This document shows, in pieces, positions 112-27,755 of a stretch of DNA of 64,000 nucleotides (the stretch's first letter is position 1; each line of letters starts with the position of its first letter). The notes beneath the pieces were generated by a model. The model searched no databases. It saw nothing but the letters and a program-made list of their open reading frames with translations, and was not told the origin of the DNA. The position numbers were made by a program, and so were the translations under genes. This DNA comes from Deferribacter autotrophicus (lineage in GTDB: Bacteria; Chrysiogenota; Deferribacteres; Deferribacterales; Deferribacteraceae), in NCBI RefSeq assembly GCF_008362905.1, contig NZ_VFJB01000010.1, positions 1 through 64,000 on the forward strand. The letters run 5' to 3'.

Positions 112-849
112 CTAAACTATATTCTCCTCTGATTTCAGTTTTCTAACACTTTCTCCGCTAAGTTTTATCTTATGACTGCTATGTACCAATCTGTCAAGTA
201 TTGCATCTGCCACAGTGGCATTCTTTAGACAATCATACCAGTTATCAATTGGTAATTGAGAAGTAACTATTGTTGAATTCACGCCAACTCTATCCTCTAT
301 TACTTCTAATAAATCATTAGCTTCATCAGCCTCAAACGCACTGATACCAAAATCATCTAAAATGAGAAGATTAAACCTTGCAAGACGGGAAAGCATTTTT
401 ATATAATCACCTTCTAACCTTGCCAGTTTTAATTCTTCCATTAATCTGGGAACCCTGTAATATCTCGCAGTATAACCATCAAGAATTGCTCTGTTTGCCA
501 GTGCTTGAGCTATATAGCTCTTCCCCGTACCAGTAGGCCCAGTAATAATTATGTTCTGTTTTCTTCTCAAATAATCACCTCCTATCAGAGAAGTCATTAT
601 ACTTTTATTCAATCCCCGTTGAATACCGTAATCGATATCTTCCACCCTTGCCATCTTCTCTTTCAGTTTTGCGGCAGCCAAGTTTCTTTTAATCTTTCGA
701 TTCAGCCTTTCCGATAGTTCGGCTTGAAGTAACTGAATTAATCTTTCTTCAAAGGGCATTTCGTTGTAAACTGGGTTTTCTTGTTGTTTGGTAAGTGCAG
801 CACTAAACCCTTTTAAACTTAATTGTGATAAAAGATTATCAAGTTCCAT
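112..849 (-). CDS. istB: IstB, IS21 transposition helper ATPase
   Basis: This 245-residue protein is the AAA+ ATPase partner of the IS21 transposase; it is related to DnaC and helps select target DNA. The Walker A motif GPTGTGKS is near residue 104 and the Walker B motif LLILDDFG near residue 163. Length is normal for the family. Its start codon overlaps the istA stop codon by one base, so translation is probably coupled. An identical C-terminal fragment lies at 62100-62394. The identification is secure; activity is inferred from intact motifs. Confidence 0.95.
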   Translation of the reverse strand: MELDNLLSQLSLKGFSAALTKQQENPVYNEMPFEERLIQLLQAELSERLNRKIKRNLAAAKLKEKMARVEDIDYGIQRGLNKSIMTSLIGGDYLRRKQNIIITGPTGTGKSYIAQALANRAILDGYTARYYRVPRLMEELKLARLEGDYIKMLSRLARFNLLILDDFGISAFEADEANDLLEVIEDRVGVNSTIVTSQLPIDNWYDCLKNATVADAILDRLVHSSHKIKLSGESVRKLKSEENIV

Positions 850-2399
850 TACTTTTCCTCCTTCTCTTCCTTGTAGTATTGTTTACCCCTTATATTCTCA
901 TGCTTATTTAAAGGGGTGATATCTTTTTTCGGTCTTTGCTGATAAGATTTGGTCTTCAAGATAGTTTTTACGCTTTTTACTGTAAACGCTCCTATTGAAA
1001 TCGCTTTTTGACAGCTTAATTCCAATTCCTTTGCAGAGTATTCATCGGATAATTTTAATATCGCAATACAGGTTCTATAAGCATTTACAGGGTGATTCCT
1101 TGATTCCATTATCATTTTCATCAACTTAGTCGTATTTAAGCCTATTTTAGATGCCCAAAAAAATATTCTTTTTGGACTCCATCTTTCTTTACTCAATACG
1201 TGGTTAGGTGGCATATGTTCATCCAAAGTAGAAGCTTGACCTTTAATAAATAACCTGGGATGAACTGCTATTAATTTACCTTTGAAAAATATTTCTACGG
1301 TAGTGTTGGAATACCATACATCAACCTTTGATTTTATATATTGATAAGGAACAGAATAATAATTACCTGCAACTTCCACATGATAATCTAAATGAACCGT
1401 TCGTAATAAGTGCTCTCTATATTGGTAACGCTTCTTAGGTAATGGTAGCAATTCTTGACGCTCTAACTCCTCTAACAGCTCAAACCTACTCTTACCTATA
1501 CCCCTTATCTTTTTTTCATTGTATTGCTCCATAAGAGGCTTTATAACAGCATTTATCTCTTCTACTCCGTAAAACACCCTATTCCTCAATTTGGCTAATA
1601 TCCAGCGCTGTATCCCCTGAACTGCCTGCTCCACTTTCGCTTTATCCTTTGGATGGTTAGGTCTAGCTGGAATTATTACTGTATTGTAATATCTTGCCAT
1701 ATCTAAATAGCTGGAATTCAATTCAAGGGTTTCTCGAGTATTCTTTATTACTGCTGATTTTAAATTATCAGGAATTATTTGTCTCGGAACTCCTCCAAAA
1801 TATTCAAAAGCCAACGTATGAGACAATATAAACGAAGACTGCTTTTGATTAGGAGTCGCATGAACAAATACCGCACCCGAGGCTCCAAGTACTGCTACAA
1901 ATATTTGAACTGCTTTCTCCTCTCCTGTACTTACATCAACCATATTCATCGTTAATCCTGAATAATCAACAAACATCGTCTCCCCAGCATAATATATCTG
2001 ACGCATTGTAGGGGATAGTCTTTGAATATAATCTTGGCAATATTTCTTAAACTGAGTATAGTTGTAACCTTCCGGATGTCTTTCTTTGTATTCCTGCCAT
2101 AATAGTAACCATGTGACACCTTTTTTGCGTATCTCTTCAGCTATGTATGCAAAATCAGGTAATGGACGGTTGTTTCTTGACTTTGCTTTACGCTCTGGGA
2201 ATAGCTTATCTTCAAGCTCATTATCCAAAAGCTTTAGCCCTTCTTCTATCGATAATCCCGTTATTTGAAAACGTGTACAGTAATCTAATACCGTTGATTT
2301 GGGAACTCCTAAAGAACGGCTAATTGCCCGATACGATAACTTATTTTGAAATCTTAAACGTAAAACATCTTTTACCATAGCCATAGCTAACCTCTTCAT
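849..2399 (-). CDS. istA: IstA, IS21 transposase
   Basis: This 516-residue DDE transposase has an N-terminal helix-turn-helix (about residues 15-45, SYRAISRSLGVPKSTVLDY). The rve-type catalytic core shows D in FVDYSG (about 145), D in IPDNLKSA (about 208) and E in KAKVEQAV (about 254). A Mu-type C-terminal domain with SVPYQYI follows. The start is preceded by a GGGGGAG ribosome-binding site. All three catalytic acids are present and length is normal, so the element may still be mobile. Confidence 0.95.
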   Translation of the reverse strand: MKRLAMAMVKDVLRLRFQNKLSYRAISRSLGVPKSTVLDYCTRFQITGLSIEEGLKLLDNELEDKLFPERKAKSRNNRPLPDFAYIAEEIRKKGVTWLLLWQEYKERHPEGYNYTQFKKYCQDYIQRLSPTMRQIYYAGETMFVDYSGLTMNMVDVSTGEEKAVQIFVAVLGASGAVFVHATPNQKQSSFILSHTLAFEYFGGVPRQIIPDNLKSAVIKNTRETLELNSSYLDMARYYNTVIIPARPNHPKDKAKVEQAVQGIQRWILAKLRNRVFYGVEEINAVIKPLMEQYNEKKIRGIGKSRFELLEELERQELLPLPKKRYQYREHLLRTVHLDYHVEVAGNYYSVPYQYIKSKVDVWYSNTTVEIFFKGKLIAVHPRLFIKGQASTLDEHMPPNHVLSKERWSPKRIFFWASKIGLNTTKLMKMIMESRNHPVNAYRTCIAILKLSDEYSAKELELSCQKAISIGAFTVKSVKTILKTKSYQQRPKKDITPLNKHENIRGKQYYKEEKEEK

Positions 2400-2630: not shown

Positions 2631-3695
2631 TTACATTTTTTTCCAAACATTTTTTCTTCTGTTTTTTTTAGTAATGAGTTTTTCTTTTTTTAAATCATCG
2701 ATAACTTTTTTTATAAAATCGATTGGTATATCGGGAAACAGTTCACTTATCATCTCAAATGTAAATTCTTCTGGCAAGTCATCCATAATTTTCTTTTTTA
2801 TCTCATAATAGATTCCTCCTTTGATTACTGGCGTAGTTCCATATTCTTGTATTATTTCAGATATTTTTTCATGAGGAGTGTCATTTTCATGGGAATCTAC
2901 AGCTTCAAAAAATCTATATGTCCATTCGTTGGCAAGTTTACGATTACCAGCAAACACTATAGGAAGATTCGGGTGGAAAGCAAATAGTTCAGCAATGGCT
3001 TTTACCGCAAAAGAGGGTGTATAAAATTTTAATTTATCAGCTTTTAAAAAATCTGAGTAGTTTGCTTCAATAACAAGAGCTGAATATTTGTATGCTGAAA
3101 GTTCAGCAAGCTGTTGATGGAAAACTGACATTTTTCGAAATTCGGAAATCAGATTATCAAATGTTTTTCTTTCCACTACAGCAAGTATTTCATTATCTTT
3201 TAGTAATGCATAATCACCCACGGGTAATCTTGTTTTTTCGGTATTGCTATTTGAGAATTTCCATGGATATTTTTCATTAGTATCTATTAGAATATTTAAG
3301 TTTTCTGAGTGATAGGTTATTAACTTAACCCTTGGTTTCCTTTCCTTTAATGCTTGTTGTGTTCTCCAAAAAATTTGTTCGTATTCTCCATCTTTGGTTT
3401 TGTACTTTTTCTTAAGAAATAAAAAATCGCATCGTTTGTTTATTGGTCTATCAAGGACAACGACAAGTCTTTTGCCTATTCTTTTTAAAGATATGACAGG
3501 TACCCTTTCTATTTCTTCAATTGGTGGATCCATTTTTCTATTATCTTCACGAAGACAAAAAATATTACCTTTTTGTCCTGGCCATTTATCTTGTACTCTG
3601 AGTGCCAATAAGGTTTTATCCCCCTGTCTAATAGTCAGGCGGTATGGAAATTTTTCGTTATTAACTGATTCAAGAACGTAAAAAGTTGTTGCCAT
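2631..3695 (-). CDS. ERCC4-domain (XPF-type) nuclease
   Basis: This 354-residue protein carries the ERCC4 nuclease signature in its middle: D138 in LIDTNE, GDY at 160-162 and VVERK at 173-177, matching the GDX(n)ERKX3D core of XPF/Mus81 nucleases, with D180 following. The first 120 residues are basic and unassigned. The last 80 residues look like a winged helix (PEEFTFEMISELFPDIPIDFIKKVIDDL) that could bind DNA. ERCC4 proteins cut branched DNA or act in repair, but the substrate here is unknown. It stands alone between the IS21 element and tRNA-Arg, with no obvious operon partner. Confidence 0.8.
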   Translation of the reverse strand: MATTFYVLESVNNEKFPYRLTIRQGDKTLLALRVQDKWPGQKGNIFCLREDNRKMDPPIEEIERVPVISLKRIGKRLVVVLDRPINKRCDFLFLKKKYKTKDGEYEQIFWRTQQALKERKPRVKLITYHSENLNILIDTNEKYPWKFSNSNTEKTRLPVGDYALLKDNEILAVVERKTFDNLISEFRKMSVFHQQLAELSAYKYSALVIEANYSDFLKADKLKFYTPSFAVKAIAELFAFHPNLPIVFAGNRKLANEWTYRFFEAVDSHENDTPHEKISEIIQEYGTTPVIKGGIYYEIKKKIMDDLPEEFTFEMISELFPDIPIDFIKKVIDDLKKEKLITKKNRRKNVWKKM

Positions 3696-3801
3696 GGCTA
3701 ATTGCTCAGAGCTATATTTTCTCTTTAATAACTTGTTTATTAATTTATTTTATACAAAATTTTTTCTGTAGTCACTCTATTTTTTCAAAACCTTGTTTGA
3801 T

Positions 3802-3934
3802 TGTCTTTATGGAAAAACATTTTCTGGGTTCAAGTTCCCATAAAACCGACATGGACGGCGGTTTTAGAGGAACTTGCCTCGGAGCAAAACTGGACGTTTT
3901 GCGAGAATGAAGAAAATGTTTTTCCATAAACAAT
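3802..3934. repeat. cruciform-forming intergenic element
   Basis: A perfect 20-bp inverted repeat (3806-3825 with 3911-3930) encloses further nested stems: CAAGTTCC 3831-3838 with 3869-3876, AAAACCG 3842-3848 with CGGTTTT 3859-3865, and GCAAAAC 3884-3890 with GTTTTGC 3896-3902. Two loops contain TGGAC. Folded as RNA or single-stranded DNA this gives a branched structure with four stems. Both strands have open frames through it, but these are by-products of the symmetry. It may be a non-autonomous mobile repeat or a structured RNA. The remainder of 3696-4014 holds nothing else I recognise. Confidence 0.7.
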
Positions 3935-4014
3935 AAAGTGTAACTTTTTGAAATATAATCATAAATTATACTAGTAACCAAAAAAATGGGGTGACTCCAG
4001 AGGTAATTTTATTC

Positions 4015-4042
4015 TTGACTAAATTGGAAAAAACTATATATT
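4015..4042 (+). promoter_or_regulatory. candidate promoter of tRNA-Arg
   Basis: TTGACT at 4015-4020 and TATATT at 4037-4042 are separated by 16 bases, about 18 bases before the tRNA 5' end. Confidence 0.5.
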
Positions 4043-4059
4043 TGCATCTGCTTGAACAT

Positions 4060-4133
4060 GCGCCCTTAGCTCAACTGGATAGAGCATCTGACTACGGATC
4101 AGAAGGTTGGGGGTTCGACTCCTCCAGGGCGCG
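4060..4133 (+). tRNA. tRNA-Arg (anticodon ACG)
   Basis: The cloverleaf is complete. The acceptor stem GCGCCCT pairs with AGGGCGC, the D arm is GCTC/GAGC, the anticodon stem TCTGA/TCAGA carries loop CTACGGA, and the T arm has TTCGACT. The discriminator base is G and CCA is not encoded. A T-rich stretch follows. Confidence 0.95.
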
Positions 4134-4306
4134 TTTCCTTTTCTTAATTTTTCAATAAATTATCAAAATTCAAAATAGCCTAAAATAGCTCAAAATAAAC
4201 ATAAAAAATGATACAAAGACGTCACAGTTTTTTCATGAATTTTCCAATAGCTGAAATAAGGATGTTGTACAGTCATATACTCAACCTATAACATGCTGAT
4301 AGTGTT

Positions 4307-4384
4307 GAGATTGCTTCGCTAACGCTCAGGGTGACGCCTTTATGTTTTTAGTCATTGCGAGGAGCATTTGCGACGAAGCAATCT
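4307..4384. repeat. palindromic intergenic repeat (GATTGCTTC / GAAGCAATC type)
   Basis: GAGATTGCTTCG at 4307-4318 is inverted as CGACGAAGCAATCT at 4371-4384, with CATTGCGAGGAG inside. A related copy lies near 27478. This type of BIME-like palindrome occurs in many bacterial genomes. Nothing else is recognisable in 4134-4483. Confidence 0.6.
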
Positions 4385-4483
4385 ATTGTTTATCAATAAG
4401 TTACAAATCTATAATATCTTTTTTATTGTGCAATATTCTCGAAATATAAATTATTTATTTTAAACAGCTATTTTTTTCAACAT

Positions 4484-23214: not shown

Positions 23215-23375
23215 TTGAACATTTAACTTTTTCTATCTCCCCATTTCCCTTTTACCCTTACAACCTCTACAACCCCTACTACTTTTACTACCCATACTAC
23301 CCTTACAACTCTTACAACCATTGCCAACCATAAAAACAATTCTCATACTCATAAAAAACAGGGGTGACGCCAGAC
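23215..23375 (+). repeat. composite intergenic repeat, copy b
   Basis: The order is TTTAACTTTTTCTATCTCCC, then many degenerate decamers (CTTACAACC, CTACAACC, CTACTACTTTTA), then CATTGCCAACCATAAA, ending in GGGGTGACGCCAG at 23362-23374. The ORFs across it are low-complexity and not genes. The rest of 22994-23214 shows nothing recognisable. Confidence 0.6.
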
Positions 23376-27676: not shown

Positions 27677-27755
27677 TGAACCTTGAACTTTGAACCTTGA
27701 ACCTTGAACTTTCTATATCTCTCCCTCCACAAAAAATGAGATGACGCCAGTTACC
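27677..27755 (+). repeat. composite intergenic repeat, copy c
   Basis: The decamers TTGAACC and TTGAACTTTG are repeated five times, followed by CTTTCTATATCTCTCCC and ending in GATGACGCCAG near 27743. The TTACAACC part is missing in this copy. Confidence 0.5.

What the first reader, a model, noticed from the sequence alone, without database searches (positions are those of the whole stretch)
3802..3934. Branched cruciform element with TGGAC loops
A perfect 20-bp outer stem encloses two or three inner stems, two of which present TGGAC loops. It is too elaborate for a terminator. Options are a MITE-like repeat mobilised by a transposase acting on hairpins, or a structured RNA.
Basis: partly seen in the sequence, partly recalled or inferred. 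Interest (0 to 1): 0.5.

Follow-up and report, generated by a model that had tools for sequence, protein, structure and literature searches.

The report
Mobile hairpin element parked at promoters
The branched hairpin is the core of a 235-base mobile DNA element present in dozens of copies in this bacterium; it resembles a known RNA family of unknown function and tends to land a fixed three bases in front of gene promoters, which is unusual and testable.

Summary
The structure is real: in 22 intact genomic copies, 29 of 48 base pairs show compensatory double changes, and unpaired bases are more conserved than paired ones. It is the core (3804-3933) of a MITE at 3766-4000 with ~20-bp terminal inverted repeats CTGGNRTCACCCCATTTTTT and 8-10-bp target duplications. 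The core is a divergent relative of Rfam RF01731 (TwoAYGGAY; best copy 42.6 bits, gathering score 43). In Clostridia RF01731 is itself repetitive, and in one genome clearly a MITE with different TIRs. The probable mobiliser is an IS4-family transposase: an Aminicenantes IS has the same TIRs, and a relic survives here. The unexpected finding is the target. In 20 of 24 elements with a duplication, TTG of a -35-like box starts exactly 3 bp beyond it; nine readable IS ends in other genomes show TTG at a similar distance. An IS110 element with matching candidate guide sequence repeatedly inserts at one site in the core. RF01731 has been proposed to bind CsrA. In Clostridia the two co-occur, but both Deferribacter genomes searched lack CsrA, so a CsrA sponge cannot be the present function here. 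Transcription is untested.

The parts
3766..4000 (+). whole MITE copy, 235 bp
   Evidence: TIR pair found; other simple copies 226-240 bp
3766..3785 (+). left terminal inverted repeat CTGTAGTCACTCTATTTTTT (3 mismatches to consensus)
   Evidence: consensus from 90 genome matches, 0 in reversed control
3981..4000 (-). right terminal inverted repeat (no mismatch to CTGGNRTCACCCCATTTTTT on - strand)
3805..3825 (+). outer stem P1, 5' arm
   Evidence: 20/20 for 3806-3825; 16 of 21 pairs with double changes
3826..3879 (+). hairpin 1 (stem 3826-3850 / 3857-3879, loop ATGGAC 3851-3856)
   Evidence: GGA kept in 18 of 22 copies
3884..3902 (+). hairpin 2 (GCAAAAC-TGGAC-GTTTTGC, loop 3891-3895)
   Evidence: GGA kept in 20 of 22 copies
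3903..3910 (+). unpaired GAGAATGA, 91-100% conserved; site at which an IS110-family element is inserted in other copies
3911..3931 (+). outer stem P1, 3' arm
3797..3939 (+). full-length sub-threshold match to Rfam RF01731 TwoAYGGAY (28.3 bits; gathering 43)
4015..4042 (+). sigma70-type promoter-like site next to the insertion: TTGACT (4015-4020), 16-nt spacer, TATATT (4037-4042)
4059..4134 (+). tRNA-Arg(acg), the gene next to which this copy sits

Best explanation
A non-autonomous transposable element (MITE). SHOWN: 226-240-bp copies with ~20-bp TIRs and 8-10-bp target duplications; a conserved, covarying three-helix core of the TwoAYGGAY (RF01731) type with two GGA loops; integration with one cut mostly exactly 3 bp upstream of a TTG (commonly TTGAAA or TTGACA), often with a -10-like box 16-18 nt further on and a gene running away from it. 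INFERRED: it was mobilised in trans by an IS4-family DDE transposase whose autonomous element has decayed here; that transposase recognises the -35 region directly (or promoter-bound RNA polymerase), fixing the promoter-proximal cut and letting the other cut vary by 8-10 bp, so copies settle upstream of promoters without destroying genes. The core was kept under selection as RNA of the + strand, probably because a GGA-loop-binding protein of the CsrA type bound it in earlier hosts. In Deferribacter, which lacks CsrA, it is now passenger sequence or serves another partner.
For: Copies: 38 core matches, 90 TIR matches with 0 in the reversed control. TSDs: 24 of 40 TIR pairs by the stricter rule, 25 of 40 by the looser one. 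Target: TTG exactly at TSD+3 in 20 of 24 (binomial P 6e-24); TTGA at 10-14 nt outside 31 of 98 ends against 1-5 in each of nine other 5-nt bins and 3.9% of random positions. Promoter nature: a gene runs away on 21 of 28 TTG sides against 13 of 44 other sides (Fisher 2e-4); TATAAT with at most 1 mismatch at 16-18 nt in 13 of 46 against 4.6% of 9225 TTGs and 0-4 of 46 off register. Mobiliser: an Aminicenantes IS with the same TIR, 9-bp TSD plus CAT plus TTGACA-17-TATAAA, DDE_Tnp_1, Y(2)R(3)E(6)K read from the alignment (IS4 hallmark, PMC2266710); relic transposase C-terminus next to a TIR at C3:74912. All nine readable IS ends outside this genome have TTG at 11-14 nt. Core; RF01731 best copy 42.6 bits, E 1.6e-5.
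Against: No intact mobiliser was found in this genome, so mobilisation in trans rests on shared TIRs and one relic. 16 of 40 TIR pairs have no duplication by the stricter rule, and 9 of 40 have no TTG at 11-13 nt, including the window copy, whose TTG is at 14 and whose TSD is not recognisable. No copy reaches the gathering score of RF01731. Four IS loci had no identifiable ends and could not be used (L125, L127, L128/L131, L130). No transcript data; the role of the core is inference, and CsrA is absent.
Confidence: 0.85

Rival explanations
1. A host CsrA-sequestering small RNA (CsrB/RsmY-like), as Gardner and Eldai proposed for TwoAYGGAY; copies would be sponge genes.
For: Two hairpins with GGA loops; the proposal is in print (PMC4333381, passages read). 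In Clostridia, 27 of 32 RF01731-positive genomes have CsrA against 4 of 20 negatives (Fisher 6e-6). Unpaired positions are more conserved than paired ones.
Against: CsrA (PF02599) has no match in either Deferribacter genome, although 46 of 59 genomes in the same search have it. Copies are mobile, with TIRs and TSDs. The window copy lies between a divergent ORF and a tRNA, with no promoter-like site for the core inside the element; one + strand site lies outside it at 3689-3718.
Confidence: 0.2
2. The -35 register reflects selection: insertions occur anywhere and only those upstream of promoters survive.
For: Insertions in genes would be lost; intergenic regions are short and contain promoters. 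Promoter context is enriched.
Against: Selection would not be expected to fix the position to the base: TTG is at TSD+3 in 20 of 24 while TSD length varies from 8 to 10, and a similar distance appears in unrelated hosts.
Confidence: 0.1
3. Stem complementarity is maintained by a mutational process (template switching or cruciform correction), not by selection on RNA.
For: Perfect long inverted repeats are prone to it (general knowledge); P1 has 16 of 21 double-changed pairs.
Against: It would not conserve loops and joints, yet unpaired core columns average 92% identity against 78% for paired ones. G-U cells exceed A-C cells (18 to 12, plus one pair that is G-U in 20 of 22; my count from the table), favouring RNA of the + strand.
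Confidence: 0.1
4. An IS200/IS605- or REP-type element mobilised through its hairpins.
For: Branched palindromes resemble such ends (recalled).
Against: Mobile units are defined by TIRs and 8-10-bp TSDs. TIR-bounded elements without the core exist, and hairpin cores with quite different TIRs exist in a Clostridia genome.
Confidence: 0.03

Closest known systems
TwoAYGGAY RNA, Rfam RF01731 (Weinberg et al. 2010, PMC2864571: one table row seen)
   Same: Outer stem plus two hairpins with AYGGAY-like loops; full-length alignments 1-168; best copy 42.6 bits, E 1.6e-5
   Different: No copy reaches the gathering score of 43. Host is Deferribacterota (the 2010 table lists human gut, gamma-Proteobacteria, Clostridiales). 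Lies inside a MITE, which the passages I read do not mention
IS4-family insertion sequences (PMC2266710, passages and section 6 read)
   Same: DDE enzyme with Y(2)R(3)E(6)K in relatives; TSD 8-10 bp; CT ends as in subgroups IS10, IS50 and ISPepr1
   Different: TIR CTGGNGTCACCCC and -35 targeting match no subgroup description in the text read. The paper mentions strong target-arm specificity for some elements, but its figure could not be viewed
Bacterial MITEs with folded cores such as ERIC or Correia elements (recalled)
   Same: Short, dispersed, TIR-bounded, palindromic
   Different: Different sequence, covarying GGA-loop core, promoter-register insertion
IS110/IS621 elements that insert into REP repeats by bridge RNA (PMC11208160 and PMC1525189: search listing and abstract starts only)
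   Same: An IS110 relative inserts at one fixed site in a repeated palindromic element, with candidate guide complementarity
   Different: The target here is the MITE core, not a REP
CsrB/RsmY-type CsrA sponges (PMC4333381 and PMC4383904, passages)
   Same: Paired GGA-loop hairpins
   Different: Mobile; CsrA absent from both genomes of this genus searched

Membership tests
MITE (non-autonomous DNA transposon) | Terminal inverted repeats | tested here: met
   90 TIR matches, 0 control; 40 paired elements
MITE (non-autonomous DNA transposon) | Target-site duplication | tested here: met
   24 of 40 pairs, 8-10 bp; not recognisable for the window copy itself
MITE (non-autonomous DNA transposon) | Shares TIRs with an autonomous element | tested here: met
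   Aminicenantes IS L061; relic in own genome
MITE (non-autonomous DNA transposon) | Mobilised in trans by that transposase | not testable with these tools
   needs an experiment
RF01731 TwoAYGGAY RNA | Score at or above the Rfam gathering threshold | tested here: not met
   best copy 42.6 of 43 bits; window copy 28.3
RF01731 TwoAYGGAY RNA | Covarying outer stem and two hairpins with AYGGAY loops | tested here: met
   loop 1 AYGGAY in 18 of 22, loop 2 NGGAY in 20 of 22
RF01731 TwoAYGGAY RNA | Transcribed RNA | not testable with these tools
   no transcript data
CsrA-binding sRNA | CsrA in the same cell | tested here: not met
   0 of 2 Deferribacter genomes
IS4 family (mobiliser) | DDE with Y(2)R(3)E(6)K | tested here: met
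   DDE_Tnp_1 hit; motif read by eye in the aligned transposases L061, L123 and L124 (L124 has D where the consensus spacing puts E's neighbour, i.e. YLTRWKCDENYRFLK still fits Y(2)R(3)D/E). No NCBIfam IS4 model reached its cut-off
IS4 family (mobiliser) | About one-helix-turn TSD | tested here: met
   8-10 bp
IS701 family (considered) | 4-bp TSD, incomplete YREK | tested here: not met
   NCBIfam IS701 models scored best but far below cut-off

The most novel reading that the evidence does not exclude
A bacterial transposon family that finds sigma70 promoters, possibly by docking on RNA polymerase holoenzyme or sigma region 4, and inserts a fixed 3 bp upstream of the -35 box, a bacterial counterpart of yeast Ty elements reading Pol III promoters (recalled). 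Its MITEs disperse a CsrA-type GGA-hairpin RNA, so the TwoAYGGAY family is a mobile RNA module rather than a set of host sRNA genes.
Probability: 0.25. Interest if true: 0.85.

Novelty: new variant of a known kind. Interest (0 to 1): 0.64.

Why it matters
It gives an RNA family of unknown function a natural history: TwoAYGGAY is, at least in Deferribacter and one Clostridia genome, the core of mobile elements. It also shows an IS4-family lineage whose insertions lie in fixed register with -35 boxes, which makes promoter-guided transposition in bacteria directly testable and might offer a way to mark active promoters. The nested IS110 insertion is a natural case of candidate guide sequence matched to a MITE.

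Tried and rejected
Terminator: rejected. Single-copy sRNA gene: rejected. Hairpin-acting transposase: rejected (TIR units without the core). IS701 as mobiliser: rejected on TSD length and YREK motif. CsrA sponge as present function in this host: rejected for lack of CsrA. The -35 rule as a property of the core: rejected, because Clostridial RF01731 MITEs in G692 have other TIRs and none of the five copies with a TSD has TTG at TSD+3. TIR and TSD were found automatically in only 5 of 20 Clostridial regions, all in G692 (5 of its 7 copies); for G1022, G857 and G968 no clear unit was found, and the one other hit (L165) is an inner stem. In G001 the single core match has no TIR; the matches in G020 and G027 (E about 5e-4) are short fragments and were not pursued. 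Isolated TIR matches L065 and L066 appear to lie in coding sequence, with no transposase relative in their genomes, and were left out of the nine external ends. Plasmid, viral and further transposase searches found nothing. Paper searches for -35 targeting by insertion sequences and for CsrA with MITEs listed no paper whose title or shown abstract start reports it; from these lists I opened only PMC2266710 and PMC4383904, and subscription journals are mostly not held. The 8-nt half of the IS110 guide match is not significant alone (263 of 1000 shuffles reach 8); the 14-nt half is (0 of 1000).

Full report
What is there. Window 3806-3825 and 3911-3930 form a perfect 20-bp stem around two hairpins with loops ATGGAC and TGGAC. 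The fold is far below shuffles (z -8.5).

Copies. The core has 38 matches in the genome at E <= 0.001 (63 candidates, 40 scored). The TIR pattern has 90 matches with at most 2 mismatches and none when read backwards. From the stretches I fetched I collected 110 TIR ends (at most 4 mismatches) and 40 facing pairs. Unit lengths are 226-240 bp for the simple form, about 1509 bp where an IS110 element is inside, and other lengths where other repeats are nested or the core is missing. 24 of 40 pairs have a duplication of 8-10 bp by the stricter rule. Two copies on different contigs share an identical 130-bp core.

Structure. On 22 distinct intact cores, RNAalifold gives 48 pairs; 29 have at least one double compensatory change. 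One further near-full-length element (C9:23510) has a rearranged core and was left out. 94.9% of cells pair; no shuffle of 500 reaches this; slid registers drop to 37-53%. These are related copies, so shuffles alone overstate the case, but the slid controls keep relatedness. Unpaired core columns average 92% identity and paired ones 78%: stems vary with compensation while loops and joints stay fixed. GGA is kept in loop 1 in 18 of 22, loop 2 in 20 of 22, both in 17 of 22. One closing pair is G-U in 20 of 22; elsewhere G-U cells number 18 and A-C cells 12 (my count). This points to RNA of the + strand.

Rfam. The window copy matches RF01731 TwoAYGGAY end to end at 28.3 bits. Genome-wide, 23 matches at E <= 10 appear; the best is 42.6 bits, E 1.6e-5, gathering score 43; the control set of 14 genomes rings once, below cut-off. 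So it is a divergent relative, short of formal membership.

RF01731 elsewhere. In 391 genomes drawn from the class of the Eubacteriales genome G063 (Clostridia), 32 have matches at E <= 1e-4; 22 of the 32 have two or more (my count), with at most 7 scored per genome. In G692 seven copies are 93-99% alike over about 280 bp; five of seven have 284-285-bp units with TIR CTGCRATTCGTAATAT and 8-10-bp duplications. RF01731 is thus a mobile core there too, with unrelated TIRs. I could not define units in the three other Clostridia genomes looked at.

Mobiliser. An exact TIR search over the public genome collection gave six stretches. L061 (Candidatus Aminicenantes) is a 1.45-kb IS with the same TIR and a 443-aa transposase, DDE_Tnp_1. 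Its flanks read TSD CATGTCGTT, CAT, TTGACA, 17 nt, TATAAA. The aligned transposases keep the Y-R-E/D-K spacing of the YREK motif, the IS4-family hallmark (PMC2266710, section 6). In this genome only a C-terminal relic remains, beside a TIR at C3:74912 with TTGACA 12 nt outside it.

Target rule. Outside 98 TIR ends, TTGA starts at 10-14 nt in 31, against 1-5 in each other 5-nt bin and 3.9% of random positions in the same segments. Where a duplication is visible, TTG begins exactly 3 nt beyond it in 20 of 24, whether it is 8, 9 or 10 bp long (P 6e-24). Overall 31 of 40 pairs have TTG at 11-13 nt on a side (counted). Mechanically called ORFs run away from the element on 21 of 28 TTG sides against 13 of 44 others (P 2e-4). 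A TATAAT-like box stands 16-18 nt on in 13 of 46, against 4.6% of all TTGs and 0-4 of 46 off register. The window copy itself is looser: TTGACT at 14 nt, TATATT 16 nt further, then tRNA-Arg(acg), and its duplication is not recognisable. Outside this genome nine IS ends could be read, in eight genomes: L061, L124, L123, L126, L129, two in Pelobacter G062 (L118, L064), L063 and L062; all nine have TTG at 11-14 nt. Four further IS loci had no readable ends. The transposases of L123 and L124 are only 26-27% identical to L061, so the rule looks old.

Function of the core. Gardner and Eldai proposed that TwoAYGGAY binds CsrA (PMC4333381, passages). In Clostridia, 27 of 32 RF01731-positive genomes have CsrA against 4 of 20 negatives (P 6e-6); the negatives are the 20 listed of 359, and size and phylogeny are not controlled. 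Against it, neither Deferribacter genome has a CsrA match, while 46 of 59 genomes in that search do. So CsrA cannot be the partner here now; either the core is a relic of earlier hosts or another protein reads the loops.

Nested IS110. Nine of the 30 core loci (L008-L012, L015, L016, L018, L025) run into the same IS110-family element at the same point, GAGAATG; L044 holds another right end. The element encodes a 337-aa DEDD transposase. Its 243-nt upstream region, read on the transposase strand, contains a 14-nt reverse-complement match to the target side AATGAGAAAAATGT (0 of 1000 shuffles) and an 8-nt same-strand match TGAGAATG (not significant alone) facing each other in one predicted hairpin, as expected of a bridge RNA (general knowledge of the IS110 family; PMC11208160 seen as listing only). 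This is inference from sequence.

Verdict. A MITE with a TwoAYGGAY-type RNA-like core, mobilised by an IS4-family lineage whose insertions keep a fixed register with -35 boxes. Shown: anatomy, mobility signs, covariation, target register. Inferred: the mobiliser in trans, promoter recognition, RNA function.

Noticed in passing
L009 1612-2889 and same site in L008, L010-L012, L015, L016, L018, L025: IS110-family element inserted at one fixed position of the MITE core, with candidate bridge-RNA guides matching the MITE.
   Followed up: partly
L015, L019, L025, L029, L084, L088: A second ~100-bp palindromic-ended insert (TCAGGGTGTTGCACA...TGTGCTACACCCTGA) sits at the same place in hairpin 1 of six core copies from different subfamilies; site-specific and unidentified.
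   Followed up: no
window 4300-4390; also L037, L042, L045, L046, L097: Another dispersed repeat, GATTGCTTCG...CGCAATGAC, near and nested inside these MITEs.
   Followed up: no
window 23355-23373 and 27732-27750: Two further right-end TIR matches (2 mismatches) in the window without a convincing left end within 420 bp; decayed or core-less copies.
   Followed up: partly
window 112-2399 (-): IS21-type transposase/IstB pair (rve, Mu-transpos_C_2, IstB_IS21).
   Followed up: no
window 2631-3695 (-): 354-aa protein with an ERCC4 nuclease domain, divergent from the MITE.
   Followed up: no
G000 and G001 (genus Deferribacter): CsrA is missing from both genomes although it is found in most genomes of the order in the same search.
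   Followed up: partly
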